Below, piece by piece: positions 4,429 through 49,757 of a stretch of DNA of 64,000 nt (position 1 is its first letter; each line of letters opens with the position of its first letter). The translations under genes were made by a program, and so were the position numbers. The notes below the pieces were generated by a model. It searched no databases. It was not told where the DNA came from and saw nothing but the letters and a program-made list of their open reading frames with translations. The DNA is from Thiocapsa rosea (GTDB lineage: Bacteria; Pseudomonadota; Gammaproteobacteria; Chromatiales; Chromatiaceae): NCBI RefSeq assembly GCF_003634315.1, contig NZ_RBXL01000001.1, positions 4,692,501-4,756,500 on the forward strand, read 5' to 3'.

Positions 4429-4515
4429 TTAAACCGCGCCGGCTCCAACGGTCGTCACGTCTGCCGGGGCCGACCCCATCCAAAAACATCAGCATACCTC
4501 GCTGGGCGCGATTTA
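4429..4515 (+). repeat. Type B inverted-end intergenic element, forward copy
   Basis: An 87-bp copy with ends TTAAACCGCGCC and GGGCGCGATTTA. The right end is slightly degraded. The interior reads GGCTCCAACGGTCGTC and later CATCAGCATACC, like the copies at 7287-7370 and (reversed) 32127-32213. It fills most of the space between the DUF2065 gene and hisZ. Confidence 0.85.
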
Positions 4516-4527
4516 TGGCGAAGGGCG

Positions 4528-4731
4528 TCAGTTGACCAAATACAGCAATCCGACGCCCGACAGCATGCTGGCCAAGCCGGCAATCCGCAGTGCCCGTTTG
4601 TCCTCGGCGGCGATCAGCAGGAGAACGCGTCGAAACCCGTCCGGATTCAGAAAAGGCCAAATGCCTTCGATAACCAGCACGAGCGCAACCGCCACCAAGA
4701 CATCATGCAGCAACACGTGACTCCGCAACAT
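4528..4731 (-). CDS. DUF2065 (YjeT-like) small membrane protein
   Basis: About 67 aa from the ATG at 4731. It has two hydrophobic stretches: LVAVALVLVIEGIWPFLNP at the N-terminal side and a C-terminal LASMLSGVGLLYLVN. This is the DUF2065 pattern of E. coli YjeT, whose function is unknown. Its place between hflC and purA/hisZ is the conserved one. The open frame reaches 4767, but the longer start adds a polar leader not typical of the family. A hairpin terminator separates it from hflC. Confidence 0.8.
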   Translation of the reverse strand: MLRSHVLLHDVLVAVALVLVIEGIWPFLNPDGFRRVLLLIAAEDKRALRIAGLASMLSGVGLLYLVN

Positions 4732-4891
4732 CCGATTCGGATCCGAGTGCGCAGTCGCCGTGCGCATCGGCCAAAGGCGGGCATCTTTTCAGACGACGGC
4801 GCATTTGTCCAACGCGAGTCGCGTGCCGGCGCCCCGCGCGGCGTCGCGCGCCGTCGTGCGGATCTGCAGGAAATCTTACAAGCGCACACAC

Positions 4892-4919
4892 AAAAACGCC
4901 TCGGAAATCCGAGGCGTTT
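4892..4919 (-). terminator. Rho-independent terminator after hflC
   Basis: Perfect 11-bp stem (AAACGCCTCGG at 4894-4904 with its complement at 4909-4919) and an AAAT loop. On the minus strand the stem is followed by TTTTT. It lies 40 bp past the hflC stop, so it should end or attenuate the hflX-hflK-hflC transcript before the DUF2065 gene. Confidence 0.85.
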
Positions 4920-4959
4920 GGTGTAGCCGAGACCTTCGGTCAGGCCCGAAAGGCCCGGA

Positions 4960-5829
4960 TCATTTTCCGGTCGGGTCGCGGAAGAATCGGAAAAAATCCG
5001 AGTCCGGCTCCAAAACCATGACGTCCCGCTCCTGCCCGAGGGAGGATCGATAGGCGCTCAAACTGCGGAAGAACGCGTAGAACTCGCGATCCTGGTTGAA
5101 GGCGTTGGCGAAGATCTGCGACGCTCGCGCGTCACCCTCGCCTCGTGTCTCCTCGGACTCGCGAAAGGCTTCGGCCACGATAACGGTCCGCTGACGATCC
5201 GCATCGGCGCGGATACGCTCGGCAGCCTCGCCGCCCTGCGCCCGCAGGTCCCTGGCGACCCGCTCACGCTCGGCACGCATCCGCGAGTAGACGGATTCGC
5301 TGACCTCCGGAGGCAAATCGATCTTCTTCACCCGCACGTCAACGACCTCGATCCCGAGATCTTGAGCGTTCTCGTTCACCTCTTTGGTCAACAACGCCAT
5401 CAGCGCAAGACGATCGTCCGAGACGACCTCCTGGATCGTGCGTTTGCCGAACTCGTTACGCAGGCTCGTATTGACACGTTCGGACAGGAGTCGTGAGGTT
5501 CGTGCCACGTTGCCGCCGGTCGAGCGGAAGAACTGCGCGGCGTTGGAGATGCGCCATTTGGTGTAGGAGTCGACGATCACGTCCTTTTTCTCGACCGTCA
5601 GGAAACGCTCAGGACGCGCATCCATGGTCTGAATGCGTCGATCGAACACCTTGATGTTGTTGAGGACCGGCACCTTGAAGTGCAGACCGGGCCGGTAGTC
5701 GTCGCCGACGATCTGACCGAGCCGCAGCTTGATCGCCACCTCGTACTGCTGCACGACGAAGGTGAAGGCGTAGATCGCGATCACGAGACCGGCCAGGCCC
5801 AGCGGCAGGAAGGTTTTCAACTTATTCAT
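4960..5829 (-). CDS. hflC: HflC, membrane modulator of FtsH protease
   Basis: Partner of HflK in the periplasm-facing SPFH complex that surrounds FtsH and limits its proteolysis of membrane proteins. The 289-aa protein has an N-terminal membrane anchor (about residues 8-27), then the band-7/SPFH domain including RPGLHFKVPVLNNIKVFDRRI. A long charged helix (RAERERVARDLRAQGGEAAE) follows, and then a C-terminal domain ending in DSDFFRFFRDPTGK. Its ATG overlaps the hflK stop by one base (TAATG), so translation is probably coupled. Confidence 0.97.
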   Translation of the reverse strand: MNKLKTFLPLGLAGLVIAIYAFTFVVQQYEVAIKLRLGQIVGDDYRPGLHFKVPVLNNIKVFDRRIQTMDARPERFLTVEKKDVIVDSYTKWRISNAAQFFRSTGGNVARTSRLLSERVNTSLRNEFGKRTIQEVVSDDRLALMALLTKEVNENAQDLGIEVVDVRVKKIDLPPEVSESVYSRMRAERERVARDLRAQGGEAAERIRADADRQRTVIVAEAFRESEETRGEGDARASQIFANAFNQDREFYAFFRSLSAYRSSLGQERDVMVLEPDSDFFRFFRDPTGK

Positions 5830-7001: not shown

Positions 7002-7180
7002 AGCTTCTCCGTCTGTCGAATTCGACTGTTGATGTTGGGTTGAGAGGCGCTTCCGCACCGAATGTGCGGTTTGAGAGAAGGGCGCGCACGGTCGTCGCTG
7101 CACGTTCCGGACGCTCAAGCCCTCGGATGACCTCTTCAGAGTGCCGACGAAGCGCGAGGATATCAAGCAAAGATGCGACC

Positions 7181-7370
7181 TAAACCGCGTCCAAGGCGAG
7201 ATGTCGTCTTTAGAGTGAGTCCGGCGTTTGGTGCATACACGGCCCTTGGCGGGGACGCGGTTTAAAATACGATCGTTTCAAATCTCTTAAACCGCGCCGT
7301 CTCCAGCGGCCGTCGAGTCCGGGGCCGATCCCGTGCAAAAAACATCGCATCCCGCGCCGGGCGCGGTTTA
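7181..7370 (+). repeat. Composite A + AT-rich spacer + B inverted-end elements
   Basis: Type A copy at 7181-7264 (TAAACCGCGTCC...GACGCGGTTTA, 84 bp), then a 22-bp spacer, then a type B copy at 7287-7370 (TTAAACCGCGCC...GGCGCGGTTTA). It lies in the 567-bp gap between hflX and hflK. Nothing else convincing is seen in that gap: 7371-7568 holds no supported gene. Confidence 0.9.
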
Positions 7371-8855: not shown

Positions 8856-8914
8856 GGCAACCTCCTTCGCAGGGAGGAAGGTCCGCGCGCGGGCCGATTA
8901 CGGCCGTCTCCCGG

Positions 8915-9318: not shown

Positions 9319-9406
9319 TTTAAACCGCGCCCGGAGCGGTATGCGTCATGTGCTGGACTGGTTTGGCCGTGCCGACTCCGACGACTGTTGGGGTTGGCGC
9401 GGTTTA
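9319..9406 (-). repeat. Type B inverted-end intergenic element, reverse copy
   Basis: An 88-bp copy between hfq and miaA. On the plus strand it reads TTAAACCGCGCCCGGAGCGG, with an interior GACTGTTGGGGTTGGCGCGG and the end GCGCGGTTTA. This is the reverse complement of the copies at 17728 and 24287. The rest of the 473-bp gap (9167-9639) shows no gene I can support. Confidence 0.88.
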
Positions 9407-16577: not shown

Positions 16578-17624
16578 GTGATACCGACAGGAGAGCTTGT
16601 CGCCCGCATCAAGCGCCGGGGTTCGGAACTCGGCTTCCAGCAGGTCGGGATCACCGACACCGACCTCGCGTCGGCCGAGTCACGTCTGCTGACCTGGCTC
16701 GCCGAGGGCCGTCACGGCACCATGGACTACATGGCCCGTCACGGGCTGAAGCGCTCGCGCCCGGCCGATCTGGTGCCCGGCACGGTTCGCGTGATCTCGG
16801 TGCGGATGGACTATCTGCCCGAGTCGCACCGGGCGATGCAGGCCGCGCTAGAGGATCCGCCGCGCGCCTTCATCTCGCGCTACGCACTGGGCCGCGACTA
16901 TCACAAGCTGCTCAGACGGCGCCTACAGCGCCTCGCCGAGCATATCCTCGCCGAAATCGGCCCCTTCGGCTACCGGGTCTTCGTCGACTCAGCACCCGTT
17001 CTGGAGAAACCGCTGGCCGCGAAGGCCGGGCTCGGCTGGATCGGCAAGCACACCAACCTCATCCACCCCCAGGCCGGCTCCTGGTTCTTTCTCGGCGAGA
17101 TCTACACGGATCTCGCACTGCCGATCGATACCCCGATTGCCGATCACTGCGGCCGCTGTCGGGCCTGCATCGAGGTCTGTCCGACCCGCGCGATCATCGC
17201 GCCCTACAGGTTGGATGCCCGCCTGTGCATCTCCTACCTGACGATCGAGCATGCAGGCAGCATCCCGCAGCCGCTGCGCCCCCTGATGGGCAACCGCATC
17301 TACGGCTGTGACGACTGCCAACTGGTCTGTCCCTGGAATCGCTTCGCGCAGCTCGCCGCCGAACCGGATTTTCAGGCACGTCACGGTCTGGATACGGCCT
17401 CGCTCGTCGAGGTCTTCGGCTGGGACGAGTCGACCTTTCTCGATCGAACGCAAGGCTCCGCGATTCGCCGCATTGGCCACCTCCGCTGGCTGCGAAACAT
17501 CGCCGTCGCGCTCGGCAACGCGCCCGCATCGGCCGAGGTGAAACAGGCCCTGAGCACCCGTGCGGACCATCCCGACGCCTTGATTCGCGAGCATGTCGGG
17601 TGGGCGCTCCGGCGGATCGGTTAA
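16578..17624 (+). CDS. queG: Epoxyqueuosine reductase
   Basis: Iron-sulfur and cobalamin enzyme for the last step of queuosine synthesis in tRNA, epoxyqueuosine to queuosine. About 348 aa from GTG 16578, chosen because the E. coli protein has a similarly short stretch before ELGFQQVGITDTDL; the open frame extends to 16467 and ATG 16527 is possible. Two ferredoxin-like 4Fe-4S clusters are visible: CGRCRACIEVCPTRAI and CDDCQLVCPWNRFAQ. RYALGRDYHKLLRRRL is also typical, and a HEAT-like C-terminus ends HVGWALRRIG. The TAA stop is the first three bases of a dispersed type A element. Confidence 0.96.
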   Translation: MIPTGELVARIKRRGSELGFQQVGITDTDLASAESRLLTWLAEGRHGTMDYMARHGLKRSRPADLVPGTVRVISVRMDYLPESHRAMQAALEDPPRAFISRYALGRDYHKLLRRRLQRLAEHILAEIGPFGYRVFVDSAPVLEKPLAAKAGLGWIGKHTNLIHPQAGSWFFLGEIYTDLALPIDTPIADHCGRCRACIEVCPTRAIIAPYRLDARLCISYLTIEHAGSIPQPLRPLMGNRIYGCDDCQLVCPWNRFAQLAAEPDFQARHGLDTASLVEVFGWDESTFLDRTQGSAIRRIGHLRWLRNIAVALGNAPASAEVKQALSTRADHPDALIREHVGWALRRIG

Positions 17625-17814
17625 CCCGCGTCCAGAGCGACATGCGTCGTTGTCATTGTGCGTTTGGCTTCGGAGATATCCTCGATCCCGGTGAGACGCG
17701 GTTTAGAATTCAATATTTTTGAATACTTTAAACCGCGCCGACTCCAACAGTCCTCGGAGCTGGCGCGGCCAAACCACTCCAACACATGACGCATACCGCA
17801 CCGGGCGCGGTTTA
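17622..17814 (+). repeat. Composite A + AT-rich spacer + B forming the whole queG-orn gap
   Basis: Type A at 17622-17705 (TAACCCGCGTCC...GACGCGGTTTA), AT-rich spacer with ATTCAATATTTTTGAAT, type B at 17728-17814 ending GGGCGCGGTTTA. The first three bases are the queG stop codon, and the last three, read on the minus strand, are the orn stop codon. There is no other sequence between the two convergent genes. Confidence 0.92.
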
Positions 17815-18360
17815 AAGCCCCCGCAAAAGATGCGTGCGATAATGTTTGAGTTCGTCGATGGACTCGCGGATATCGTCGAGGGCCAGGTGTCGCGACTCTT
17901 TCTTGAAGGCGCTCGCCACGTCGGGCGCCCAGCGTTGCGCGAGGATCTTCAAGGTGCTCACGTCCAGATTGCGATAGTGGCAGTAGGCCTCGAGCTTCGG
18001 CATCCAGAGCGCAAGGAAGCGTCGGTCCTGACAGATGCTGTTTCCGCACAAGGGCGAGGCGCCGGGCGGGACGAAATCCGCGAGAAAGCGCAGGGTCGTC
18101 GATTCGGCATCGGATACGCTCTGGGTGCTTGCGCGTACCCGATCGAGCAGGCCGGATCGGCCGTGATGGTCGCGATTCCACTCGTCCATGCCCGCAAGAA
18201 CGGCTTCGGGCTGATGGATCGCAACGACGGGACCCTCCGCCAGGATGCGAAGATCGCTGTCGGTGATCATGGTCGCGATCTCGAGGATTCGATCGCTCGC
18301 GGGGTCGAGCCCCGTCATCTCGAGATCGAGCCAGATCAGATGATTCTCGTTCTTGGTCAA
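17812..18360 (-). CDS. orn: Oligoribonuclease
   Basis: DEDDh-family 3'-5' exonuclease that degrades RNA dinucleotides and finishes RNA and pGpG turnover. About 182 aa from TTG 18360, which has AGGAG at good spacing; E. coli Orn has 181 residues. The longer frame to 18429 is not family-like. Catalytic blocks: [12 protein letters not shown] near the start, the Asp of [15 protein letters not shown], and the His/Asp of [18 protein letters not shown]. The stop codon TAA is contributed by the right end of a type B element. Confidence 0.96.
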
Positions 18361-18800: not shown

Positions 18801-19814
18801 GTGACGAAACGGCGGCTGTCCGGACGCCAGATCGAGCGGATCCAAACCATCCAGGACCGCCGCCGCCAGCGCCTCGCCTCGCGCGTCGACAACGCCTTGT
18901 CGGAGATCGAAGGCGAGCCGTTGCCCGTGGAGGGGCGAGTCGTCGTCCGCCACGGGGCCAATCTGGCGGTCGAGGACGCCGAGGGCGACATCACCCATTG
19001 TCTGTCGCGTCAGAATATCGGGCATCCGGTCTGCGGGGATCGCGTGGTCTGGCAACGCACCGCGGACAATCAGGGTGTCGTCACGGCCATCCTGCCGCGG
19101 CAAACGCTGCTGAGCCGCCCCGACTTCGGCGGTCGCGACAAGCCGTTGGCGGCCAACCTGACGCGCCTGGTGATCCTGATCGCGCCGCGGCCCGAGCCGA
19201 GCGATTATTTGATCGATCAGTATCTGGTGGCGGCCGAGACCATGGGGGTGGAGGCCATCATCGTGGCCAACAAGATGGATCTGCTCGACCCCGACGATCG
19301 TGCAGCGTTTCAGGAACGTTTCGCCTATTACGGGGCCATCGGTTATTCACTCCTCTGGACCAGTCTGCGTGAGCCGGAGACCCTGGTCGACCTGATCCGT
19401 CATCTCGGCGGGCAAACGAGCATCCTGGTGGGCCAATCCGGCGTCGGAAAATCATCCTTGGTTAAGGTGCTGCTGCCGGATCGCGAGATCCAGATCGGCC
19501 GACTCTCCAAGGCCACCGGCCTCGGGCGCCATACCACCTCGGCGGCGACCTGCTATCGATTGGCCGAGGACGGCGCCTTGATCGACTCCCCGGGCGTGCG
19601 CAGCTTCCGCACGGGTCCGCTCGACCGCGACGCCTTACAGCAAGGGTTTCGCGAGCTGCGTCCCTATATCGGACACTGCCGGTTCGCAGACTGCCGACAT
19701 GATCAAGAGCCCGAGTGCGCCATCCGCGGCGCCGTCGCAGAGGGTCTCATCGCCCCGCAGAGGCTCGCCAATTTCAAACATCTGCTGGCCGAAGCGGAGC
19801 AGGCACGCACCTAA
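18801..19814 (+). CDS. rsgA: Ribosome small subunit-dependent GTPase A
   Basis: Circularly permuted GTPase that checks late 30S subunit maturation. 337 aa; GTG start. Order: OB-fold region with GDRVVWQR, then G4 NKMD, G1 GQSGVGKSSLVKVLL, G3 DSPGVRSFR, and a C-terminal zinc-binding domain HCRFADCRHDQEPECAI. This G4-before-G1 order is diagnostic. In E. coli rsgA neighbours orn in the same cluster. Its TAA stop codon is the first TAA of a repeat element. Confidence 0.97.
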   Translation: MTKRRLSGRQIERIQTIQDRRRQRLASRVDNALSEIEGEPLPVEGRVVVRHGANLAVEDAEGDITHCLSRQNIGHPVCGDRVVWQRTADNQGVVTAILPRQTLLSRPDFGGRDKPLAANLTRLVILIAPRPEPSDYLIDQYLVAAETMGVEAIIVANKMDLLDPDDRAAFQERFAYYGAIGYSLLWTSLREPETLVDLIRHLGGQTSILVGQSGVGKSSLVKVLLPDREIQIGRLSKATGLGRHTTSAATCYRLAEDGALIDSPGVRSFRTGPLDRDALQQGFRELRPYIGHCRFADCRHDQEPECAIRGAVAEGLIAPQRLANFKHLLAEAEQART

Positions 19815-19919
19815 ACCGCGCCCGGTGCGGTATGCGTCATGTGTTGGAGCTGGCGCGTTTTAGAGTATTGAACCGCGTCCAAAGCGACAAGCGACGCATA
19901 CCACGCCGGGCGCGGTTTA
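19812..19919. repeat. Deleted type B element followed by an A/B hybrid element
   Basis: 19812-19862 is a reverse type B whose middle is lost: both ends are kept (TAAACCGCGCCCGGTGCGG, GCTGGCGCGTTTTA) over 51 bp. 19868-19919 begins like type A (TTGAACCGCGTCCAAAGCGA) and ends like type B (CATACCACGCCGGGCGCGG). The first TAA is the rsgA stop codon. It fills most of the gap to the EVE-domain gene. Confidence 0.8.
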
Positions 19920-22880: not shown

Positions 22881-24179
22881 CTATCCGGATGACTCCACCG
22901 CCATGTCGCCGAGGACTGAGACGACCGAAGCGCAGAGTGTCGCAAGCTCCTCGTCGCCGATGATGTAGGGCGGCATGAGATACACCAGTCGGCCGAACGG
23001 GCGCACCCAGACCCCGCGCGCGACAAAACGGCGCTGGATCTCGCGCATGGAGACAGGCGCGCACATCTCGACCACACCGATCGCGCCGAGCACGCGCACC
23101 TCGGCCACGCCCGGAACGTCTCGGCAGCCCGCCAGTCCGGCGGCCAGACCGCGCTCGATCCGAGCGATGTTGGCTCGCCAGTCGGAGGCCAGCAAAAGAT
23201 CGATGCTGGCATTGGCGATTGCGCAGGCAAGCGGATTGCCCATGAAGGTCGGGCCGTGCATGAAGACGCCGGGCTCGCCCGAGGAGATGGTACGGGCGAC
23301 TCGATCGGTCGCGAGCGTCGCCGCCAGGGTCAGATAGCCGCCTGTCAGGGCCTTGCCGAGCGTCATGATGTCGGGCGCAATGCCGGCATGCTCGCAAGCG
23401 AAGAGCGCGCCGGTGCGCCCGAAGCCGGTGGCGATTTCGTCGGCGATCAGGAGCACCTCGAAGCGGTCGCAGAGCCGGCGAGCCTCCGCCAAATACTCGG
23501 CGCTGTAAAAGCGCATTCCCCCCGCCCCCTGCACGATCGGCTCGAGGATGACCGCGGCCAGCTCCGCGTGATGCCGCTCGATCAAGGCAGTAAACTCGGC
23601 GATGTGCTCCGGCCGACAAGGCTCGCCGAATCGGCACGCGGGCGCCGGCGCAAAGACCTGCTCGGGCAGCACGCGGCTGAAGAGATGGTGCATCCCGGTC
23701 ACCGGATCACAGACCGACATGGCCCCTTGGGTGTCCCCGTGATAGCCCGAGCGGATCGTCATGAGGCGGTGCCGCTCGGGTCGTCCGGCGGCCTGCTGGT
23801 ACTGGATGGCCATCTTGATGGCAACCTCGACCGAAACCGAGCCGGAGTCGCAGAGAAAGACCTGCTGCAGCGGCTCCGGGGTCAGCTTCACCAGGGTCTC
23901 GATCAGGCGCACTGCCGGCTCGTGGGTCAGCCCGCCGAACATGATGTGCGACATGGCGTCGAGCTGATCTCGCGCCGCCTGATTGATGACCGGATGGTTG
24001 TAGCCGTGGATCGCGCACCACCAGGACGACATGCCGTCGATCAGCTCGCGGCCGTCCATAAGCCGGAACCGACAGCCCGACGCCGAGCGCACGGCATAGA
24101 CCGGATCGCGATCGATCGTAGAGGTGTAGGGATGCCAGGCGTGAGCCCGGTCGATCCCGAGCAGCTCGTCCTCTTTCAT
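22881..24179 (-). CDS. bioA: Adenosylmethionine-8-amino-7-oxononanoate aminotransferase
   Basis: PLP enzyme of biotin synthesis; transfers the amino group of S-adenosylmethionine to KAPA, giving DAPA. 432 aa, family length. Landmarks: [36 protein letters not shown], the [13 protein letters not shown] loop, [28 protein letters not shown] and the PLP lysine in [13 protein letters not shown]. No other bio gene is nearby. A type A element starts only 2 bp upstream of the ATG, so the 5' leader is made of repeat sequence (see findings). Confidence 0.97.
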
Positions 24180-24181
24180 CC

Positions 24182-24373
24182 TAAACCGCGTCCAGAGCGA
24201 TATGCGTCGTGTTCATGTTGTATCGGGCTCAAGGATCTTTCCGACCTTTGGAGTGACGCGGTTTAGAATTTAATTTTTTTAAGACGTTAAACCGTGCCAG
24301 CTCCGACAGTCGTCGGAGCTGGCGCGGCCAAGCCATTCCAGCAAACAACGCATACCGCACCGGGCGCGGTTTA
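24182..24373 (+). repeat. Composite A + AT-rich spacer + B upstream of bioA
   Basis: Type A at 24182-24264, a 22-bp spacer GAATTTAATTTTTTTAAGAC, type B at 24287-24373 with CTCCGACAGTCGTCGGAGC, itself a perfect palindrome, at its centre-left. It occupies nearly all of the gap between bioA and the GTPase gene. Confidence 0.92.
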
Positions 24374-24378
24374 AGCGA

Positions 24379-25812
24379 TTACAGATCCGCTCGACTGTCG
24401 ATCTCGCTCACTGCGAGCCCTTGCAGGATGCCTCTGATGATCGCGCGACACTCCTCCTCGCGCTCGGATTTGCCCTTCTTTGCCGCGTTGAAGAACCGCG
24501 CCAGATCACGTTGCTGCGCGGCGGGCAGCTCCTCCGTGAAACCGGCCCGGCGGATCTCCTTCTCGGGCATCTTGTCGGGCGCGTCCTCCTCCGCGGCTTG
24601 GCGACCGTGCGACCAGTTCATGGCCCGCGCACTGTAGAGCACGATGCGATCCAGGAGGACGAAGGGAAAACGCGGATTGTGAACCGGTCCGACCGTGAAA
24701 CGCTGCGTTCCCGAGGCGCGCTCGATGTTGAGTTTGGCCAGTGCCTTGCTTCCGACGAACCCCAAGACCCCGCCCGTCGCCGCACCGATCAACGCGCCTG
24801 CTCCGAAGGTATGCCCGGCCGTCGAGATGTCGATGGTCGCACCCGAGGCCGCACCCGCAGCCATGCCGACCAAAGCAAGCTGGCGCTTGGATAGACCGAG
24901 CGCCTGATTCACGTCCTCCGAGAGCAGATCCTTGCCGAGAATCGAATCCGGGGGCATATCCCAGACATGGTGCCGAAAATTCGCGCGGATCTGCTCCTGC
25001 GCCTTCCTTTCGAGCTGGCGCAGCCCGTCTTCGAACGCCGCCGTCACATCCTCCTTGACACGCTCGCGACCGCTCTCGAAGACCAGCTTGCTCTCCTTCA
25101 CCGTCTTGGACACCTTGAAGGTGAGCGCATCCTTGAGCAGATCAAGAATGGTGGTCACGGCCTGATCGGTACGCCGGTTCCAGTCATGCTCGAAGGCATG
25201 GATCGCTTCTTCGACGAGCGGCTCCCAGCGCTGATCGATGCTCTTGAGCGCCTGCATCAACCGCACGCGCTCCCCGTAGGTGGCGCGATGGGCATTGAAG
25301 TCGCGGATCGAGTTGAACGTCTTGCAGAGCGCATCGCGCCACTGGGCCATGTAACGCGTGTTGTTGGTCAGGTTGTTCAGGATCGCCATGCGCGGGCGGG
25401 CGGTCAGACGCAGCAGCTCGATCTCGACCCGGTCCTTTTCCTTGATGCGTTTGGAGCCGTCGACCACCAGGATGATGGCGGCGCCCTCGGCAACCGGCTC
25501 GAGAAGCTCGCAGTCGTGCGAAAAGAGGGGGTCTGCCCGATGCGCGGCAACGAACGCCCGCGCCAGCTCGCACTTGTCGCTTTGGGCCTGAAACCATTCC
25601 AGGATCGCGTTGGGATTCTGAAAGCCAGGGGTATCGATGAACTCGATCACCGGTCGCCCGTCGATGACGACGGGATAGACGTTCGCCTCGGTCGTGGTGC
25701 CCGCGCGTTTATCGATCTGGATCAGGTCGTTTTCGGTCAGTGTCGCGACCACGGAGGACTTGCCGGCATTCGGGTGCCCCATGATCGCCAGTCTTGGAAT
25801 CTTCCCGGACAT
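24379..25812 (-). CDS. GTPase with DUF3482 domain
   Basis: 477 aa. The N-terminal Era/TrmE-like G domain has G1 GHPNAGKSSVV (12-22), G3 DTPGFQNP and, in the G4 position, a non-standard NNLTNN instead of NKxD. The DUF3482 part follows, with long charged helices (about 210-310) and a Gly-rich hydrophobic stretch (GAASGATIDISTAGHTFGAG, about 330-370) that could sit in or on the membrane. Function is unknown. Its ATG overlaps the stop of the DUF2868 gene (TGATG), and these two families are regularly found together, so they probably act as a pair. Confidence 0.9.
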   Translation of the reverse strand: MSGKIPRLAIMGHPNAGKSSVVATLTENDLIQIDKRAGTTTEANVYPVVIDGRPVIEFIDTPGFQNPNAILEWFQAQSDKCELARAFVAAHRADPLFSHDCELLEPVAEGAAIILVVDGSKRIKEKDRVEIELLRLTARPRMAILNNLTNNTRYMAQWRDALCKTFNSIRDFNAHRATYGERVRLMQALKSIDQRWEPLVEEAIHAFEHDWNRRTDQAVTTILDLLKDALTFKVSKTVKESKLVFESGRERVKEDVTAAFEDGLRQLERKAQEQIRANFRHHVWDMPPDSILGKDLLSEDVNQALGLSKRQLALVGMAAGAASGATIDISTAGHTFGAGALIGAATGGVLGFVGSKALAKLNIERASGTQRFTVGPVHNPRFPFVLLDRIVLYSARAMNWSHGRQAAEEDAPDKMPEKEIRRAGFTEELPAAQQRDLARFFNAAKKGKSEREEECRAIIRGILQGLAVSEIDSRADL

Positions 25813-28491: not shown

Positions 28492-28863
28492 ATGACACGC
28501 GATTCGAGCCCCGCCATGCCGCGCCTCGCGGTCCTCGCCGCCGCACTCCTCGCCGGCGCGGCATTCCTGTACATGGTGAAGTTGATGCACGATATCTCCG
28601 CGAATGTCGCCCTGATGGCGGGCGAGATGGCATCCATGTCGGCCGACATGGGCCGGATGCGCCTGGATATGACCTCGCTCGCCCGAGACGTCTCCGCCAT
28701 GGGCCAACAGGTCGCCACCCTGCCTGCCATCGCCGAGGACATGGGCAGGATGCGCGTTGGAATGGAACGCCTCTCGGGGATCGTCGGCGGCAGCGACCAG
28801 ATGCCGGCAGTCAACCCGATGGGCGTGATTCAACAGATGATCCCCGGCAGCGATCGGCGCTAA
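28492..28863 (+). CDS. Small membrane-anchored coiled-coil protein, 123 aa
   Basis: From ATG 28492, with GGAG upstream: one membrane segment near the N-terminus (LAVLAAALLAGAAFLYMV), then a Met-rich helical region with heptad-like repeats (GEMASMSADMGRMRLDMTSL) and a short C-terminal tail. It resembles small unknown proteins with a membrane anchor and coiled coil; no family name can be given. The open frame reaches 28411 but has no better start. The TAA stop is the first three bases of a type A element. Confidence 0.75.
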   Translation: MTRDSSPAMPRLAVLAAALLAGAAFLYMVKLMHDISANVALMAGEMASMSADMGRMRLDMTSLARDVSAMGQQVATLPAIAEDMGRMRVGMERLSGIVGGSDQMPAVNPMGVIQQMIPGSDRR

Positions 28864-28944
28864 ACCGCGTCCAGTGCAAAATGCTCGCTTTCGAGTGAGC
28901 TCGGCGTTTGATGCAGCCACGGCCCTTCGCGGGGACGCGGTTTA
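28861..28944 (+). repeat. Type A inverted-end intergenic element
   Basis: 84 bp, TAAACCGCGTCCAGTGCAAA to GGGGACGCGGTTTA, close to the copies at 7181 and 38236. Its first TAA is the stop codon of the preceding gene, and it ends 60 bp before glgX. Confidence 0.92.
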
Positions 28945-31113: not shown

Positions 31114-32130
31114 ATGCAACTCGCAATGATCGGTCTCGGTCGAATGGGCGCCAATATGGTGCTCCGGCTTATGCGCGCCGGACATCGGTGTGTCGTCTAT
31201 GATCGCGATCCCGCCGCAGTCGCGGCGCTGGTCGCCGAAGGCGCCGTCGGTGCGCAGGACATGGCCGATCTCTGCGCCAAGCTCGAAGCGCCGCGCAACA
31301 TCTGGATCATGGTTCCGGCGGCGGTCGTGGACCAGGTCATCGACGATCTGATCCCGCATCTGGAGACCGACGACACCCTCATCGACGGGGGCAACTCGAA
31401 CTACCGCGACGACATCGCCCATGCAAAGCGCCTCGCACCGAAGGGGATCCACTTCGTCGACTGCGGAACCAGCGGAGGCGTCTGGGGTCTGGAACGGGGC
31501 TACTGCCTGATGATCGGCGGGGAGGACGAGGCGGTCGAACGGCTTGATCCGGTCTTCGCCGCCCTCTCGCCCGGCCCGGGCGAGATCGAGCGCACGGCCG
31601 GACGCGACGGCGCCTTCAGCCGCTCCGAGCAAGGCTATCTGCACTGCGGCCCCAACGGTGCGGGCCATTTCGTGAAGATGGTCCACAACGGCATCGAGTA
31701 TGCGCTGATGGCCGCCTACGCCGAGGGCTTCAACATCCTCAAGCATGCCGGCGTCGGGCTCGATGAGCATGCGGTGGATGCCGAGACCGCGCCTCTGGCC
31801 AATCCCGAGCATTATCAATACCGCATCGACGTCGGCGAGGTCGCCGAGGTCTGGCGTCGCGGCAGCGTGGTGGCCTCCTGGCTGCTGGACCTGACGGCAA
31901 CGGCGCTGCGCGCGGACCCGCAGCTTGAAGGATTCAGCGGCCGCGTCTCGGACTCGGGCGAGGGCCGTTGGACCTGCCTCGCGGCGATCGAGACCGGTAC
32001 ACCGGCGCCCTTGCTCACCACCGCACTCTTCGAGCGCTTCAGCTCGCGCGGCGAGGCGGATTTCGCCAATCAGATCCTCTCGGCCATGCGCTATCAGTTC
32101 GGCGGCCATCACGAGAAGCCCGAACGTTAA
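31114..32130 (+). CDS. gnd: 6-phosphogluconate dehydrogenase, decarboxylating (short form)
   Basis: Oxidises 6-phosphogluconate to ribulose 5-phosphate and CO2. 338 aa, the length of the short (YqeC/GndA-like) class, not the 470-aa E. coli form. Dinucleotide fold GLGRMGANM at residues 7-15, [11 protein letters not shown], substrate region [20 protein letters not shown], catalytic [20 protein letters not shown]. The C-terminal helical part is typical. It lies 31 bp after glgX. The TAA stop overlaps the end of a reversed type B element. Confidence 0.95.
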
Positions 32131-32213
32131 GCCGCGCCCGGCCGGTTATGCGCTGTTTTCGGATGGGGTCAGCCCCGGAAGACTTGACGAGCGTTGGAGC
32201 TGGCGCGGTTTAA
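32127..32213 (-). repeat. Type B inverted-end element, reverse copy, between gnd and zwf
   Basis: 87 bp; ends TTAAGCCGCGCCCGG and GGCGCGGTTTA. The interior GGATGGGGTCAGCCCCGG resembles the copy at 4429 read backwards. It includes the gnd stop codon. Its presence inside a presumed operon may break or dampen the transcript. Confidence 0.88.
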
Positions 32214-34013: not shown

Positions 34014-34077
34014 TCGTTGTCGTTGTCGTTGTCGTTGTCGGATCGATCATCGATTACGACAACGACAACGACAACGA
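34014..34077. repeat. Hexanucleotide-arm hairpin, copy 3
   Basis: Four CGTTGT units (34015-34038) on the left; the right arm 34056-34077 is the exact complement of 22 bases. The loop contains GATCGATCATCGAT. The outer flanks CGAGACC (about 34000) and GGTCTCG (34080) also pair. It lies in the 391-bp gap after the CPXCG gene. The remainder of that gap holds a type A element and no gene. Confidence 0.92.
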
Positions 34078-34262
34078 ACGGTCTCGACAGGTCTTGCATC
34101 CCAAGCCCGCCTCGGGTGAAATTCGCGCCCGAGCAGCGTCTGAGGCCCGACAGACGCCCAACCGCGCCAAGGTCCAATACGCCGAGGTTTTCCCGAAACC
34201 GGACTCGGCGGTCCCGAATCGCTCGATCCTCGACGCGGTTTCCATTCCCAACAAACAAGTCC

Positions 34263-34347
34263 TGAACCGCGTCCGCTCCGACGCGCCCGGGATCGCCGAG
34301 ATCCGATCCCGCGCGATGCCGGCCCAAAGTGCACACGACGCGGTTCA
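34263..34347 (+). repeat. Type A element variant with TGAACC ends
   Basis: 85 bp with ends TGAACCGCGTCC and GACGCGGTTCA; both ends carry the same A-to-G change, so the inverted match is kept. The same change is seen in the copy at 49373-49456. It ends 12 bp before the ABC ATPase start. Confidence 0.82.
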
Positions 34348-34359: not shown

Positions 34360-35298
34360 ATGATCGAGGTTCGCGAGCTGAGTCGCAGCTATGGCGATCT
34401 CAAGGCGGTGCAAGCGGTGTCGTTCGACATCGGCCGCGGCGAGATCGTCGGACTGCTCGGCCACAACGGGGCCGGCAAGACCACCATCATGAAGATGATG
34501 ACGGGTTATCTGGAGCCGAGCAGCGGCTCGATCCGGATCGACGGTCTGGACATCGCCGAGCAGCGGCGCGAGGCGCAACGGCGCATCGGCTATCTGCCCG
34601 AGAACTGCCCGCTCTACCCCGAGATGCGTGTAATCGACTACCTGGACTACCAGGCAGCATTGCACGGGATGGCCGACAGCCGCCGACCCGCGGCCATCCG
34701 CCGGGCGATCGAGCGCACGGATCTCGGCCCCAAGGCGACCGCGACCATCGCCACCCTCTCGCGAGGCTATCGGCAGCGCGTCGGCGTGGCCCAGGCGATC
34801 CTGCACGAGCCGGCCATCCTCATCCTGGACGAGCCGACCAACGGCCTGGACCCGTCCCAGATCCAGCACATGCGAAGCCTGGTGCGCGAGCTGGCCGAGG
34901 ACGCGACCCTGATCATCTCCACCCATGTCCTCCAAGAGGTCGAGGCGGTGTGCAGCCGGGTGCTCATCATGCGCGGCGGCCAACTGGCGCTCGACAGCGC
35001 GCTGGATGCCATCGGGCGACCCAAGCGGCTGCTCGTCACACTCGACTGCTCGCCCGAGGAGGCCCGTCCGGTGCTCGCGCAGATCGAGGGAGTCACGGGG
35101 GTGGAGGCGTGGGACGGCGACGCCGGTCTGCAGCATTTCGCCCTGAGCGCGGAGGATCCTCAGGCGCTCGCGCCGCGGGTCGCCAAGGCGCTCGGCGGAC
35201 AACCTTGGAGCCTCTATGAGCTCGCGCCCGAGCGGCGTGACCTCGAAGACCTCTTCGGAGCCGTGACCCTGGAGCAGATGGAGGTGGCTCATGTCTGA
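34360..35298 (+). CDS. ABC transporter ATP-binding protein, GldA-like
   Basis: Cytoplasmic ATPase subunit of an ABC-2-type transporter. 312 aa. Walker A GHNGAGKTTIMKMM, Q-loop area GYLPENCPLYPEM, signature LSRGYRQRVGVAQA, Walker B ILILDEPTNGLDP, H-loop IISTHVLQEVEAV. A C-terminal extension (about 220-312) is typical of the DrrA/GldA group. It overlaps the next gene by 8 bp. The GldA-GldFG arrangement is named after gliding motility genes but is widespread in non-gliding bacteria, where the substrate is unknown. Confidence 0.93.
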   Translation: MIEVRELSRSYGDLKAVQAVSFDIGRGEIVGLLGHNGAGKTTIMKMMTGYLEPSSGSIRIDGLDIAEQRREAQRRIGYLPENCPLYPEMRVIDYLDYQAALHGMADSRRPAAIRRAIERTDLGPKATATIATLSRGYRQRVGVAQAILHEPAILILDEPTNGLDPSQIQHMRSLVRELAEDATLIISTHVLQEVEAVCSRVLIMRGGQLALDSALDAIGRPKRLLVTLDCSPEEARPVLAQIEGVTGVEAWDGDAGLQHFALSAEDPQALAPRVAKALGGQPWSLYELAPERRDLEDLFGAVTLEQMEVAHV

Positions 35299-38235: not shown

Positions 38236-38429
38236 TAAACCGCGTCCAGAGCGAAATGCTGACTTTCGAGTCGGTTCGACGTTTGGCGTATCCACAGCCC
38301 TTAGCAGGGACGCGGTTTAAAAAGAATTTATTTTTTAACACTTTAAACCGCGCCTGCTCCAACAGTTGTCGGAGCCGGCGCGGCCAAGTCAATCCAACAA
38401 ACTACGCAAATCGCGTTGGGCGCGGTTTA
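38236..38429 (+). repeat. Composite A + AT-rich spacer + B between gldFG and the DUF4340 gene
   Basis: Type A at 38236-38319, spacer AAAGAATTTATTTTTTAACA, type B at 38342-38429. It starts 8 bp after the gldFG stop and ends 8 bp before the DUF4340 start, so it is essentially the whole gap. Confidence 0.92.
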
Positions 38430-41221: not shown

Positions 41222-41321
41222 ACAAGAGCACCTCTGTAGCGGTCGAATCGGGCCGTAGGATGCCGAACCTTGCCGGGCGTCGTGCCGAACTGGGCAGCCT
41301 GCGGCTGACCTCTGCCGAGAC

Positions 41322-41357
41322 TGATCCAAAACATCGCATACCGCGCCAGGCGGTTTA
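41322..41357 (+). repeat. Right half of a type B element
   Basis: GATCCAAAACATCGCATACC followed by GCGCCAGGCGGTTTA, without a left end. It lies in the 183-bp gap before the coiled-coil gene. Confidence 0.65.
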
Positions 41358-41404
41358 GGTTAGATTAATACGCATCTCCGGACGGAGCGCGACGGGAGGG
41401 ACAC

Positions 41405-41902
41405 ATGGCCCTGGCACGGGAAGACATCGAATTCATCAAGGCCCATCTGGGCGAATGGCTGGCCGAGCAGTCATTCGCCAAGCCCCCGGCTGTCTACGAG
41501 ATCGAGCTGCGCGAGCGCATGGTCCGCGTGGAGGAGGAACTCAGGCACCAGCGCGAGCTGATCAAGACCATCCTGGTGCAGATGGACAAACGCTTCGACG
41601 CGGTGGAGAAGCGTTTCGAGCAGATGCAGCTGAACATGGACAAGCGCTTCGAGGCCGTCGATAAGCGCTTCGAGCAAATGCAGCTGAACATGGATCAGCG
41701 CTTCGAGGCCGTCGATAAGCGCTTCGAGCAAATGCAGCGGAACATGGATCAGCGCTTCGATGCCGTCGAAAAACGCTTCGAAGCCATGGACAAGCGATTC
41801 GAAGAGCTGACCCGGCGGCTCGACCGTTTTATGTTCTGGTCATTCGGTCTGACGGTTAGCGTCGGCGCACTCGTCGTTGCCGCGATCCGCCTTTGGCCTT
41901 AA
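41405..41902 (+). CDS. Coiled-coil membrane protein built from 18-residue tandem repeats
   Basis: 165 aa. The N-terminal part (1-60) includes REDIEFIKAHLGEWLAEQ. Then come three 18-residue units of the form DKRFEAVDKRFEQMQLNM (61-78, 79-96, 97-114) and a partial fourth (115-128), with alternating 7/11 spacing typical of a coiled-coil rod. A C-terminal membrane helix (about 143-163, FWSFGLTVSVGALVVAAIRL) anchors it. The DNA repeat unit is 54 bp. It resembles DUF1640-like coiled coils only in pattern. Its TAA stop lies in a repeat element. Confidence 0.85.
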   Translation: MALAREDIEFIKAHLGEWLAEQSFAKPPAVYEIELRERMVRVEEELRHQRELIKTILVQMDKRFDAVEKRFEQMQLNMDKRFEAVDKRFEQMQLNMDQRFEAVDKRFEQMQRNMDQRFDAVEKRFEAMDKRFEELTRRLDRFMFWSFGLTVSVGALVVAAIRLWP

Positions 41903-41942
41903 ACCGCGCCCAGCGCGGTATTCGATTTTGGACGCGGTTTAA
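41899..41942. repeat. Short hybrid B/A element
   Basis: 44 bp: left end of reversed B (TTAAACCGCGCCCAGCGCGG) joined to a right end of A (GGACGCGGTTTAA). The first TAA is the stop codon of the preceding gene. It lies between two convergent genes (coiled-coil and hom). Confidence 0.75.
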
Positions 41943-47554: not shown

Positions 47555-47775
47555 CGACGACGCCCCGCGCGCCGTTCCAGCTTGAAGGCCGTCATATCGT
47601 CGACCATCGCCGCATAGGGGATGCGATCGGCCCCGCCGAAGTGCGCGGACGCGCGTATTGTCAGATCGGCAATATCGGACAGGCGTCCATCTGCATCGGA
47701 CTCCCCGAGCAGACGCTGCAGGCCGATCAGTCCTCCGGACTGGATCTTGAACGGAGCGGCGAATGGGCATCTCAT
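47551..47775 (-). CDS. Small conserved-looking protein, 74 aa, between MOSC and dsbD
   Basis: From ATG 47775 with AAGGAG about 11 bases upstream; opens MRCPFAAPFKIQSGGLIGLQ, contains ADLTIRASAHFGGADRIPYA and ends FKLERRAGRRR. No signal peptide or membrane helix. Both ends overlap their neighbours by 4 bp (ATGA), an arrangement that is strong evidence of translation. No family is recognised. The ORF is extended upstream (to 47943) only through the MOSC gene. Confidence 0.7.
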   Translation of the reverse strand: MRCPFAAPFKIQSGGLIGLQRLLGESDADGRLSDIADLTIRASAHFGGADRIPYAAMVDDMTAFKLERRAGRRR

Positions 47776-48284
47776 CGCGGAAAAATCTCCTTTCGGTCGA
47801 TCTCGGCAAGGCATGGAACCACGGCATCTCCGAGCCGGATGATCCCGCCCGTGATCACCCGTGCGTTCAGGCCGGCGTGACCACGCATGGCGTTGTAGCC
47901 TCCGGGACCCAATGCGTCCTCCATGCGCGAGCAGGGCGGGCACGGACCCGTTCCTTCGAGCACCGCCGTCCCGATGCGAAATCGTTGGCCTTTCAGTGCC
48001 AGGAGGTTGACACCAAAGATGACCAAATTACGCCGCAGCAATGCGGGGTCGATCGGATTCCGGCGCAAGAGCGCACCCAAGACCGCGAGGTGCTCGGCCT
48101 GCAGAAGGGTCACACCGCGCGAACCCGATCGGCCTGCGTAATGATCGCCCTCGAGGCCGCGCCCGGCCAACACCGTCACCTCGGTGCAGTGGATCATCTC
48201 CGCCCGTCGTGCCGGCCGTCGGCCGATCCACGCCACCTCGCCCGAATGCGGAAATCGGACGAGCAGATCCGAAAGAGAATCCAT
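47772..48284 (-). CDS. MOSC domain protein
   Basis: 170 aa from ATG 48284. MOSC domains carry a conserved Cys and bind molybdenum cofactor sulfur. Landmarks: GRGLEGDHYAGRSGSRGVTL, LLRRNLVIFGVNLLALKGQR, GTGPCPPCSRMEDALGPGGY with the likely catalytic Cys, and GHAGLNARVITGGIIRLGD. It is a stand-alone MOSC of the YiiM-like kind. No molybdenum genes are adjacent. It is the first gene of the MOSC-74 aa-dsbD unit. Confidence 0.92.
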   Translation of the reverse strand: MDSLSDLLVRFPHSGEVAWIGRRPARRAEMIHCTEVTVLAGRGLEGDHYAGRSGSRGVTLLQAEHLAVLGALLRRNPIDPALLRRNLVIFGVNLLALKGQRFRIGTAVLEGTGPCPPCSRMEDALGPGGYNAMRGHAGLNARVITGGIIRLGDAVVPCLAEIDRKEIFPR

Positions 48285-48482
48285 GCGATGCGCCTGCGTC
48301 TCGAAACGTGTGTGTCCCGCCAAGGTCGGGGCAACGCGCATCAGGACAAGACGCACACCTCGCCGGCGGGATCCATTCGGCCTCGGCGCCGTCCAACCGC
48401 GGACAGCATCTGCGCGGGCTGCTAAGGTTCACGTCTGCGCTGTCTTTCGACCCAAATCAACCTCAATCAGACGACACTCGAT

Positions 48483-49364
48483 ATGCCCCGAATCTTTCTC
48501 CCGATCCGCCTCGCCGCGGCCCTCGTCGCGATCGCCCTCACGCTCGCGGGATGCAGCCGTATCGGCATCGCCTACAACACCGGCGATTTTCTCGTGAAGA
48601 CCTATGCCAAAGACTACCTGGACCTGGAGCAGGCTCAGCTCAAGCGCTGGGAGCCCCTTCTCGGCGCCGAGCTGACCCGTCATCGCGCCGAGGAGTTGCC
48701 CTATCTCGCGGCCTATTTCGATCACATCCTCGCGGCCAGCGAGGCGGGTTTCGACGCGAGCAACATGGCCTGCCTCACCGGCGAATTTCGAGATCTCTAC
48801 AGGCGCCAGGCGCGTTTCGCCGTGAACCTCGCCGCACCGCTTCTGGCCGAGCTGACCCCTGCACAGATCGAGCGCCTGGACGAGCGCTTCCGCAAAGAAG
48901 CGGCCGAGGATCGCGCCGAGATTGCGGAGCGCAGCACCACGCGCGAGAAAGAGAAACGCGCCCGACGCTACGTCAAATCCATCGAGGACTGGACCGGCCG
49001 GCTGAATGCGGAGCAACAGGCGATCGTCATGGACGTGACCGGACGCATGCCCGACACCCAGGCAAGCCTGGTCGAGTATCGCACCGCCAAACGAGAGCGC
49101 TTGATGGCGCTGATCCGGGGCAAGGCCCCAGAGCCCGAGATCAAGCGCTTCCTCACAGATTGGCTCGTCGACTTCAGCGATCTGCCGCCGGATCTCGAGC
49201 AAGGGGGACAAGTCCTGGGCGAGCGGATCGGCGAGCTCTTCGTCAGCCTCGGCAAGACCCTCGACGCCAGCCAACAGGATCGCTTGAACAAGCGTTTACG
49301 CAGCCTTCGCGATGATTTCATGAAGCTGCAGAGACAACCGAGGATGGCACAGATGACCTGTTGA
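48483..49364 (+). CDS. DUF6279-type lipoprotein
   Basis: 293 aa with a lipoprotein signal (LALTLAGC-like lipobox, ALTLAGCSR, Cys about residue 24). The mature part is helical and charged: YNTGDFLVKTYAKDYLDLEQ, ELTPAQIERLDERFRKEAAE, ASQQDRLNKRLRSLRDDFMK. This is the pattern of DUF6279 proteins, of unknown function. It is divergent from the MOSC gene across about 200 bp. Confidence 0.88.
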   Translation: MPRIFLPIRLAAALVAIALTLAGCSRIGIAYNTGDFLVKTYAKDYLDLEQAQLKRWEPLLGAELTRHRAEELPYLAAYFDHILAASEAGFDASNMACLTGEFRDLYRRQARFAVNLAAPLLAELTPAQIERLDERFRKEAAEDRAEIAERSTTREKEKRARRYVKSIEDWTGRLNAEQQAIVMDVTGRMPDTQASLVEYRTAKRERLMALIRGKAPEPEIKRFLTDWLVDFSDLPPDLEQGGQVLGERIGELFVSLGKTLDASQQDRLNKRLRSLRDDFMKLQRQPRMAQMTC

Positions 49365-49372
49365 ACCGGCAC

Positions 49373-49456
49373 TGAACCGCGTCTGGAGCGATGTGCTTGG
49401 GTGACATGAACTCCGGCCGTCTCGGATCCAACAACCTCGGCGGTTGACGCGGTTCA
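49373..49456 (+). repeat. Type A element variant with TGAACC / GGTTCA ends
   Basis: 84 bp; TGAACCGCGTCTGGAGCGAT to TTGACGCGGTTCA. It is followed by AGAATCAAAAGATTC, an AT-rich small hairpin like the spacer of the A-B composites, but no B copy follows. It starts 8 bp past the lipoprotein stop. Confidence 0.85.
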
Positions 49457-49487
49457 AGAATCAAAAGATTCAAAAACCGAAACACGA

Positions 49488-49611
49488 GGATGGGTAGAGC
49501 GCAGCGAAACCCACCCTCCCAAGCTGATCATTCGGTCGGGTGGACGAGCGAGAGCGAAGTCCACCAAAGCCCGCGGCGGCGCTGGTGGACTGCGCTGCGC
49601 TTGTCCACCCT
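49488..49611. repeat. Cluster of three REP-like hairpins
   Basis: GGATGGGTAGAGCGCAGCG with AAACCCACCC (49488-49517); GGTGGACGAGCGAGAGCG with AAGTCCACC (49539-49564); GTGGACTGCGCTGCGCTTGT with CCACCC (49585-49611). The first matches the sequences next to the RAYT gene at 57547, likely its targets. The rest of the 396-bp gap is taken up by the two type A copies. Confidence 0.85.
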
Positions 49612-49672
49612 ACTGCGCTTACCCTACGGCGCGTGCGGAGGCAGTTCGTGAATTTGTATTTCTTTCATCTTC

Positions 49673-49757
49673 TAAACCGCGTCCAGATCCAACCTCTTGA
49701 ATTCCAAAACCGTTGAGGTCCACACCAAACATCGAATATGGTTCGGGACGCGGTTTA
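49673..49757 (+). repeat. Type A inverted-end element next to the mrcA stop
   Basis: 85 bp, TAAACCGCGTCCAGATCCAA to GGGACGCGGTTTA, ending 3 bp before the mrcA stop codon. It is the last copy of this family seen in the window. Confidence 0.88.

What the first reader, a model, noticed from the sequence alone, without database searches (positions are those of the whole stretch)
4429..49757. Dispersed 84-88 bp intergenic family with TAAACCGCG...CGCGGTTTA ends
About 20 copies or fragments are present. Full copies: type A at 7181, 17622, 24182, 28861, 34263, 38236, 49373, 49673; type B at 4429, 7287, 9319 (reverse), 17728, 24287, 32127 (reverse), 38342. The ends are 11-12 bp inverted repeats while the interiors fall in two unrelated types. 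All full copies lie between genes, touching coding sequence only at a stop codon. End changes are mirrored (TGAACC with GGTTCA at 34263 and 49373), so the ends are kept complementary. Such a family could be a small non-autonomous mobile element or a structured RNA/terminator element. I do not recognise it as a named family.
Basis: partly seen in the sequence, partly recalled or inferred. Interest (0 to 1): 0.75.

Follow-up and report, generated by a model that had tools for sequence, protein, structure and literature searches.

The report
Stop-codon-landing mobile repeat with guarded ends
Purple sulfur bacteria of the genus Thiocapsa carry hundreds of copies of a tiny hairpin-ended DNA element that jumps into TA sites, often exactly into stop codons without harming the gene, and in the old copies examined the two short ends stay conserved while everything between them drifts, which suggests that the cell came to use them.

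Summary
In detail: all 15 full copies are confirmed within 0-2 bases. The host genome has 594 copies with exact 11-bp ends, 578 of them 82-88 bp by subtraction. Among 56 genomes searched, own included, eight Thiocapsa have 145-594 copies, one other Chromatiaceae genus has 53, two genomes have 1.
It is a mobile, TA-targeting, MITE-like element: congeners have one TA where filled sites have TA...TA. A likely mobile unit is a ~193-bp composite: arm A, ~23-bp AT-rich linker, arm B, tail to tail. The target is YTAR, so TAA and TAG stops are natural targets and the element's end restores the stop. 62 of 218 such stop sites are occupied against 71 of 1132 other intergenic YTARs.
Old copies do not simply decay. 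In four old loci stems differ 2.3%, loops 22%, linkers 15%, flanks 8%. End changes are mirrored in 41 of 43 two-sided departures. This argues against junk decay or template-switch repair as the only cause and for selection on the ends. An RNA role is not supported. No autonomous transposon or binding protein was found; the trans-acting factor is unknown.

The parts
4430..4515 (-). single arm, B type (one end mutated)
   Evidence: no arm in the orthologous gap of 8 congeners
7181..7264 (+). composite 1, arm A
7265..7287 (.). composite 1, 23-bp AT-rich linker
7288..7370 (-). composite 1, arm B
9321..9406 (+). single arm, B type; clean empty site in G004 (CTCGTTTAGTGTCG) gives the TA duplication
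17622..17705 (+). composite 2, arm A; bases 17622-17624 are the TAA stop of the queG-like gene 16578-17624
17706..17728 (.). composite 2, AT-rich linker
17729..17814 (-). composite 2, arm B; its outer end is the TAA stop of the minus-strand exonuclease (orn-like) gene 17812-18360
   Evidence: G001 and G009 empty (one TA), G003 and G005 one arm, G002 and G004 two arms (one end mutated in G004)
19812..19862 (+). shrunken 51-bp arm; first 3 bases are the stop of gene 18801-19814
19869..19919 (.). shrunken 51-bp arm beside the previous one; G001, G002 and G005 have two full arms here
24182..24265 (+). composite 3, arm A
24288..24373 (-). composite 3, arm B
28861..28944 (+). single arm, A type; supplies the TAA stop of gene 28492-28863; G009 has CTAG and no element
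32128..32212 (+). single arm, B type; supplies the TAA stop of gene 31114-32130
34158..34242 (.). decayed partner arm of the next one (ends no longer complementary)
34263..34347 (.). old arm with diverged loop, TGA...TCA ends, at the same place in 7 Thiocapsa genomes
38236..38319 (+). composite 4, arm A
38344..38429 (-). composite 4, arm B
41900..41941 (+). 42-bp chimera of a B end and an A end; first bases are the stop of gene 41405-41902
49373..49456 (+). arm with TGA...TCA ends, interior unlike A or B
49673..49757 (.). arm with TAA...TTA ends, interior unlike A or B

Best explanation
A TA-targeting MITE-like element whose old copies became retained pairs of end sites spread over the genome. 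Shown: each arm is 84-86 bp with 12 complementary end positions YTRAACCGCGYC...GRCGCGGTTYAR. Arms often stand as arm A, a ~23-bp AT-rich linker, arm B, tail to tail. Insertion is at YTAR with duplication of TA. Because the inserted DNA starts with AACC, a TAA or TAG stop hit at its TA becomes TA+A, so the protein is unchanged, on either strand. In four old loci the stems are kept while the loops drift. Inferred: the composite is the usual mobile unit, spread by a TA-specific transposase in trans (identity unknown), and single arms arise largely by deletion between repeated ends. After landing, the two ends of an arm and their spacing are kept by host-level selection because a protein, either the domesticated transposase or a nucleoid-type protein, binds the two ends as a pair. 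The mirrored changes come from pairing of the ends as a DNA hairpin or cruciform, or from template-switch repair between the ends, acting on top of that selection.
For: Copy number and narrow length. Distribution. TA duplication at empty/filled sites: window 9321 (G004 empty), queG/orn gap (G001 and G009 empty), the gap orthologous to window 41222-41404 (G001 and G002 empty, composite in G005 and G008), one arm nested in another arm's terminal TA in G005, plus two sites consistent with it. Left flank base Y in 98%, right flank base R in 95% of 134 units. Stop codon equals the first 3 bases at 68 of 153 element ends that face a gene 3' end: TAA 52, TGA 16, against TGA 665, TAA 213, TAG 165 over all called stops. 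Occupancy 62/218 stop YTARs, 71/1132 other intergenic, 1/584 coding. Constraint: stems 2.3%, loops 22% pairwise difference; 11 of 163 stem columns variable against 219 of 440 loop columns, Fisher p = 2e-25; own genome left out, 53/2143 against 1255/5814. Where the flanks match, the old composites are missing in G006, G007 and G010. Mirrored changes: 41 of 43 two-sided departures identical, 3.8 two-sided expected (arms with more than 2 stem mismatches were not taken, which favours matched ends somewhat). In-place mirrored changes: own 3625 against its G004 orthologue, two positions; TAGACC...GGTCTA in G005 at the site of window 32128. Deletion to a single arm: G008 at locus s2.
Against: No autonomous element with these ends in the 2.66 Mb held, overlaps included, at 7 IS630-type loci or at 9 Y1-transposase loci. 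No binding protein identified. Host function is inferred from rates in four loci that I chose from own copies with intact ends (relatives were not selected). Some old arms decay: the partner arm 34158-34242 has non-complementary ends in own and relatives. At locus s1 the TAA..TTA / TGA..TCA difference between genomes is not a clean pair change, because the left end is tandemly duplicated in six of the eight genomes, and G009 has TAG..TTA there. Length is not absolute: 13 of 594 own copies are 89-102 bp, and end duplications or large inserts sit inside old copies in G001, G004 and G005. Complementary ends are not expected if a protein merely reads duplex DNA, and a fixed loop length is not expected of a hairpin, so the bound form is uncertain. 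83 of 134 units are single arms.
Confidence: 0.6

Rival explanations
1. An ordinary bacterial TA-MITE (ERIC, RUP or Correia type) with no host role: copies insert, then decay neutrally; the excess at stop codons only reflects where insertion is harmless.
For: Mobility and TA duplication; coding YTARs almost empty, 1 of 584; many young similar A and B copies and visible decay products.
Against: Stems about 10 times slower than loops in four old loci. 26 of 187 arms (taken at 80-90 bp) have interiors that cluster with no other at 70% identity and are still 82-86 bp long. In convergent gaps, which hold no promoters, non-stop YTARs are filled in 11 of 134 cases (8%), against 62 of 218 (28%) for stops overall.
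Confidence: 0.2
2. Neutral MITE whose ends are kept identical purely by template-switch repair between the two arms of the quasi-palindrome.
For: Mirrored double changes; template switching is reported to create compensatory changes (PMC8794818, passages read) and to homogenise inverted-repeat arms (PMC8604942, start of abstract in a search listing).
Against: Repair keeps the ends alike but should let them drift together at about the loop rate. In 118 flank-defined orthologous pairs, 15 of 1364 pair positions changed on both sides, 9 of them to another complementary pair (0.7%), while cores differ by 16%. In the old loci stems barely change. No convincing loop inversion: 2 of 208 pairs, weak and related to each other.
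Confidence: 0.1
3. Transcribed 3'-UTR hairpin (terminator, mRNA protector or processing signal), selected as RNA.
For: Position at gene 3' ends and stop codons; REP elements at gene 3' ends are thought to act as RNA (PMC3733652, passages); single-strand folds (DNA parameters) pair the ends in 6 of 6 arms tested, in one only in part, 5 of 6 with z of -2.46 or lower. The first wobble count without the flank base was 27 G-U to 14 A-C.
Against: The larger count is 48:36, p = 0.23. No T-tract, no terminator-like hit on an arm in the stretch scanned. No Rfam match. A loop of fixed length but free sequence is odd for RNA. Copies also lie upstream of genes, such as 34263 just before a likely ribosome-binding site.
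Confidence: 0.1
4. A REPIN/BIME-like family moved by a Y1 (RAYT) transposase.
For: High copy number, inverted pairs, gene 3' location; Y1 genes exist in all 15 genomes searched.
Against: None of 9 own Y1 loci is flanked on both sides by element ends; one has an arm about 1.3 kb away and one a lone exact end about 0.6 kb away, no more than the density predicts. Y1 genes are as common in element-poor genomes: 14 in G006, 4 each in G007 and G010. TA duplication and the long loop do not fit REPs.
Confidence: 0.07

Closest known systems
TA-type bacterial MITEs: ERIC/IRU, RUP, Correia/NEMIS (table in PMC2229807, passages read)
   Same: under 200 bp, no gene known, terminal inverted repeats, TA at the ends, TA duplication, many intergenic copies, hairpin-capable
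   Different: arms not AT-rich (40% AT); two-arm composite with AT-rich linker; frequent insertion into stop codons with the stop restored; stems conserved in old copies while loops drift; end sequence not among those I read
REP/BIME/REPIN elements (PMC3733652, passages; PMC3116915, search listing only)
   Same: hundreds of copies, inverted pairs with spacer, near gene 3' ends; GTAG REP ends are reported to supply TAG stops often
   Different: loop about 62 nt against 2-20 nt; TA duplication; no linked Y1 transposase found; no GTAG or CGTC tag at the foot
Integron attC sites (recalled, no call)
   Same: hairpin with conserved complementary ends, variable middle, next to stop codons
   Different: ends are YTRAAC, not RYYYAAC; dispersed insertions at TA, not cassette arrays; nearly fixed length

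Membership tests
Bacterial MITE, TA type | short, terminal inverted repeats | tested here: met
   84-86 bp arms, ~193 bp composite, 12 complementary end positions
Bacterial MITE, TA type | target-site duplication, TA | tested here: met
   empty against filled sites
Bacterial MITE, TA type | presence/absence between close relatives | tested here: met
   orthologous gaps in up to 10 congeners
Bacterial MITE, TA type | autonomous transposon with matching ends | tested here: inconclusive
   none in 2.66 Mb held, 7 IS630-type and 9 Y1 loci; most of the genomes was not read. Also not known for most bacterial MITEs in the 2007 review
Bacterial MITE, TA type | AT-rich (typical, not defining) | tested here: not met
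   arms 40% AT, intergenic 40% AT; only the linker is AT-rich, 80%
REP/REPIN | short palindrome with small loop and GTAG or CGTC tag at the foot | tested here: not met
   12-pair stem, about 62-nt loop, foot is YTR (feature table from PMC3733652)
REP/REPIN | linked RAYT (Y1) gene | tested here: not met
   0 of 9 own Y1 loci flanked; presence does not follow the element
Rfam RNA family | covariance-model match | tested here: not met
   0 matches at gathering score over 64 kb
Integron attC | RYYYAAC/GTTRRRY core boxes (recalled) | tested here: not met
   the base before AAC is a purine in the consensus
Integron attC | IntI integrase and cassette array | not tested
   no integrase search made; copies are dispersed among other genes

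The most novel reading that the evidence does not exclude
A mobile element that spreads by landing in stop codons has been turned into a genome-wide scaffold: several hundred paired 12-bp sites at a nearly fixed distance, often doubled around an AT-rich hinge, bound by a single dedicated protein (a tamed transposase or a new nucleoid protein) in Thiocapsa.
Probability: 0.3. Interest if true: 0.8.

Novelty: new variant of a known kind. Interest (0 to 1): 0.6.

Why it matters
Bacterial MITEs are mostly treated as parasites whose copies decay. Here hundreds of copies per genome can be placed in time by comparing congeners, and the old copies examined show conserved ends with freely drifting interiors. 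That makes domestication of a repeat family measurable site by site. The stop-codon trick (TAR at the target, AACC at the edge of the inserted DNA) shows simply how an element can fill the safe sites of a GC-rich genome: about 28% of suitable stops in the stretches examined are occupied.

Tried and rejected
RNA family: no Rfam match. RAYT/REPIN origin: own Y1 loci not flanked and no matching distribution. IS630-type partner: 7 loci; only scattered ends with 1-2 mismatches, none exact, no flanking pair. Autonomous copy in held sequence: one weak chance pair in 2.66 Mb. Viral origin: 31 viral contigs match a pattern with 9-bp ends; lengths are even over 76-82 and 0 of 31 have TR..YA, so chance. 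Plasmid and phage collections: no match to one 193-bp composite. Helical-turn steps in arm length: a hint of +10 in a sample dissolved genome-wide; most of the 94-101 bp copies look like end duplications or chimeras by eye. RNA wobble bias: 36:30 (27:14 without the flank base), 48:36 in the larger set (flank base there 17:30). First rate test on orthologous arms (ends 4.7%, core 11.3%) was set aside because the choice of intact ends on one side could explain much of it; I then used flank-defined places and relatives-only counts. Loop inversion: 2 of 208 pairs, weak. Literature: no paper found that describes this repeat; searches were (open-licence PMC only; listings are capped, for example 20 of 25 papers). 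Passages read in PMC2759123, PMC3049150 and PMC10969869 did not describe it either.

Rows left out before counting. G007 and G010 (no element) in s1; G007, G010 (no element) and G008 (one arm deleted) in s2; G007 (no element), G001, G004 and G005 (large inserts) in s3; G006 (no element) in s4; 32 of 150 distinct pairs left out as not alignable. In one search the middle of the printed list was cut; the list of 26 unclustered arms was whole.

None of these moves the odds: the rate difference and the 41 of 43 do not depend on them.
Full report
OBSERVATION. The window lies in a 6.1-Mb genome. Exact ends are far above chance: 32 in the window, 0.26 expected. Genome-wide there are 594 copies with exact 11-bp ends and total length 76-102, and 0 for the reversed control. 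Of these 13 are 89-102 bp and 3 are 81 bp, leaving 578 of 82-88 bp by subtraction. Of 56 genomes searched, own included, 11 have a match: own 594; congeners G001-G005 489, 294, 352, 220, 315; G008 185; G009 145; G006 1; two genomes of other genera of the family, 53 (G028) and 1 (G031). Congeners G007 and G010 have none. A pattern for the A arm, scanned over one genome for each of 84,980 species, gave 38 stretches: Thiocapsa, one Chromatiaceae MAG, and one contig filed as Nanopelagicales. The end pattern itself was not scanned beyond the 56 genomes and the viral contigs.

ANATOMY. Each arm has 12 paired end positions, YTRAACCGCGYC...GRCGCGGTTYAR. Watson-Crick pairing is 0.76 at the outermost pair and 0.89-0.99 at the next eleven, then falls to 0.22. 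Two positions vary but in step: position 2 is A/A in 145, G/G in 35 and other in 7 of 187 arms; position 10 is T/T 102, C/C 63, G/G 1 and unmatched 21. The base outside the TRA is also paired within an arm: T..A 78, C..G 62, C..A 21, T..G 18, other 8. Arms come in two young types. A (mostly 84 bp, CGTC ends) and B (mostly 85-86 bp, CGCC ends) largely share about 25 bp at one end when B is reversed. Of 134 units, 83 are single arms, 49 pairs and 2 triples. Of 53 junctions between neighbouring arms 39 are tail to tail, 1 head to head, 2 in the same direction, and 11 have an arm that I could not orient (counted from the list). The 52 linkers are 19-30 bp, 23 bp in 26, on average 80% AT against 40% for intergenic DNA. 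I infer that the A-linker-B composite of ~193 bp is the usual mobile unit and that single arms come largely from it by deletion between repeated ends. In the queG/orn gap there are 2 bp between the last codons in G001 and G009, 86 bp with one arm in G003 and G005, and two arms in own, G002 and G004. At locus s2 G008 has lost exactly one arm and the linker.

MOBILITY. I compared each window gap with up to 10 congeners. The number of arms varies between genomes with conserved gene order. Empty sites give the duplication: CCTCGTT-TA-GTGTCG in G004 against CCTCGTT-TA[AACC...GGTT]TA-GTGTCG here; GGT-TA-AAGC in G001 against GGT-TA[AACC...GGTT]TA-AAGC in G005; AAAC-TA-G in G001 and G002 against a composite in G005 and G008; and an arm inserted in another arm's terminal TA in G005. 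The left flank base is Y in 98% and the right one R in 95% of units. The target is thus YTAR with a 2-bp TA duplication.

STOP CODONS. At 68 of 153 element ends that face a gene 3' end, the gene's stop is the first three bases of the element. Few genes run into an arm in another frame: 4 stops lie 16-55 bp inside, and 5 of 193 arms overlap a called gene. Those stops are TAA 52 and TGA 16, close to the element's own ratio, while all called stops are TGA 665, TAA 213, TAG 165. The target explains it: a TAA or TAG stop after a pyrimidine, with a purine in place, is YTAR, and insertion after TA puts A next, so TAA is restored; the same holds for a gene on the other strand. Of 218 YTAR stops 62 are occupied, of 1132 other intergenic YTARs 71, of 584 coding YTARs 1 (own 800 kb, window and 400 kb of G004; my own gene caller). 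In convergent gaps, which hold no promoters, non-stop YTARs are filled in 11 of 134 cases, so tolerance alone does not explain the 28% at stops. That GTAG REPs often supply TAG stops is already in print (PMC3733652, passage read), so stop supply as such is not new in kind.

RETENTION. 26 of 187 arms (taken at 80-90 bp, ends within 1 mismatch) have interiors that cluster with no other at 70% identity, yet are 82-86 bp long. A scan for any 11-bp perfect inverted repeat, blind to sequence, finds the same family dominating total lengths around 82-88, with variants such as TAAAACGCG, TGAATCGCG, TAAACTGCG and TAAGCCGCG on both ends. I then took four loci with diverged interiors: three searched in 10 congeners with their flanks, and the window arm 34263. 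Where flanks match in G006, G007 or G010 the composite is missing, with the flanks close together or unrelated sequence between; in the element-rich genomes it is shared. Pairwise difference over 4-8 genomes per locus: stems 2.3%, loops 22%, linkers 15%, 150-bp flanks 8%; variable columns 11/163 stem, 219/440 loop. Leaving out the own genome, on which the loci were chosen, gives 53/2143 against 1255/5814. In 118 flank-defined orthologous pairs of young and old arms the stems differ 5.5% and cores 16% (pairs are not independent, and one arm of each pair was chosen for good ends).

WHY THE ENDS MATCH. Among 309 distinct arms (ends within 2 mismatches, at most 2 stem mismatches), 43 positions depart from consensus on both sides, 41 identically, and 119 on one side; 3.8 two-sided would be expected if independent. 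Two cases happened in place: own 3625 against G004, two mirrored positions, and TAGACC...GGTCTA in G005 at the site of window 32128. Locus s1 is less clean: ends match in G002 and G008 (TGA..TCA) and in five others (TAA..TTA), but the left end is tandemly duplicated in six genomes and G009 has TAG..TTA. Template-switch repair can mirror changes without selection (PMC8794818, passages), but alone it would let both ends drift together at about the loop rate. I see 9 complementary pair changes in 1364 pair positions against 16% in cores. So I infer selection on the end sequence plus either hairpin or cruciform recognition or repair. An RNA role is not supported: G-U 48, A-C 36 on the sense strand.

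MECHANISM. Most likely a TA-specific transposase spread the element; for RUP, which also targets TA, an IS630-type transposase is proposed (PMC2229807, passage). None with these ends was found here. After landing, a protein that holds the two ends of an arm at near-fixed spacing makes the copy worth keeping. The first half is supported by empty sites, the second is inference from rates in four loci. Results against it: the decayed partner arm 34158-34242, inserts inside old copies, and the lack of any identified factor.

NOVELTY. It works like a TA-type MITE in its mobility, and like REP/BIME DNA in its position. It meets the MITE tests for size, inverted repeats, TA duplication and polymorphism; it fails REP tests for loop, tag and linked RAYT. 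No paper found describes it (searches listed under Tried and rejected). I rate it a new variant of a known kind.

Noticed in passing
window 19812-19919 and 41900-41941: Shrunken copies: two neighbouring 51-bp arms where G001, G002 and G005 have two full arms, and a 42-bp chimera of a B end and an A end.
   Followed up: partly
own genome C1 around 724276-724370 (L083) and window around 34030-34080: GTTGTC/GACAAC tandem tracts form inverted repeats in intergenic DNA of several Thiocapsa genomes, unrelated to this family.
   Followed up: no
G004: orthologue of window gap 24179-24379 (in L174) and the s3 locus (L277): Similar inserts with CTCTCCCCAACCCCTC text sit beside or inside element copies at two places, perhaps another repeat.
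   Followed up: no
L202: A contig filed as a Candidatus Nanopelagicales MAG carries an A-type arm; perhaps a misbinned contig.
   Followed up: no
window 34263-34347: The old arm shared by 7 genomes ends 12 bp before the start of gene 34360-35298, next to a likely ribosome-binding site (AGGAG).
   Followed up: partly
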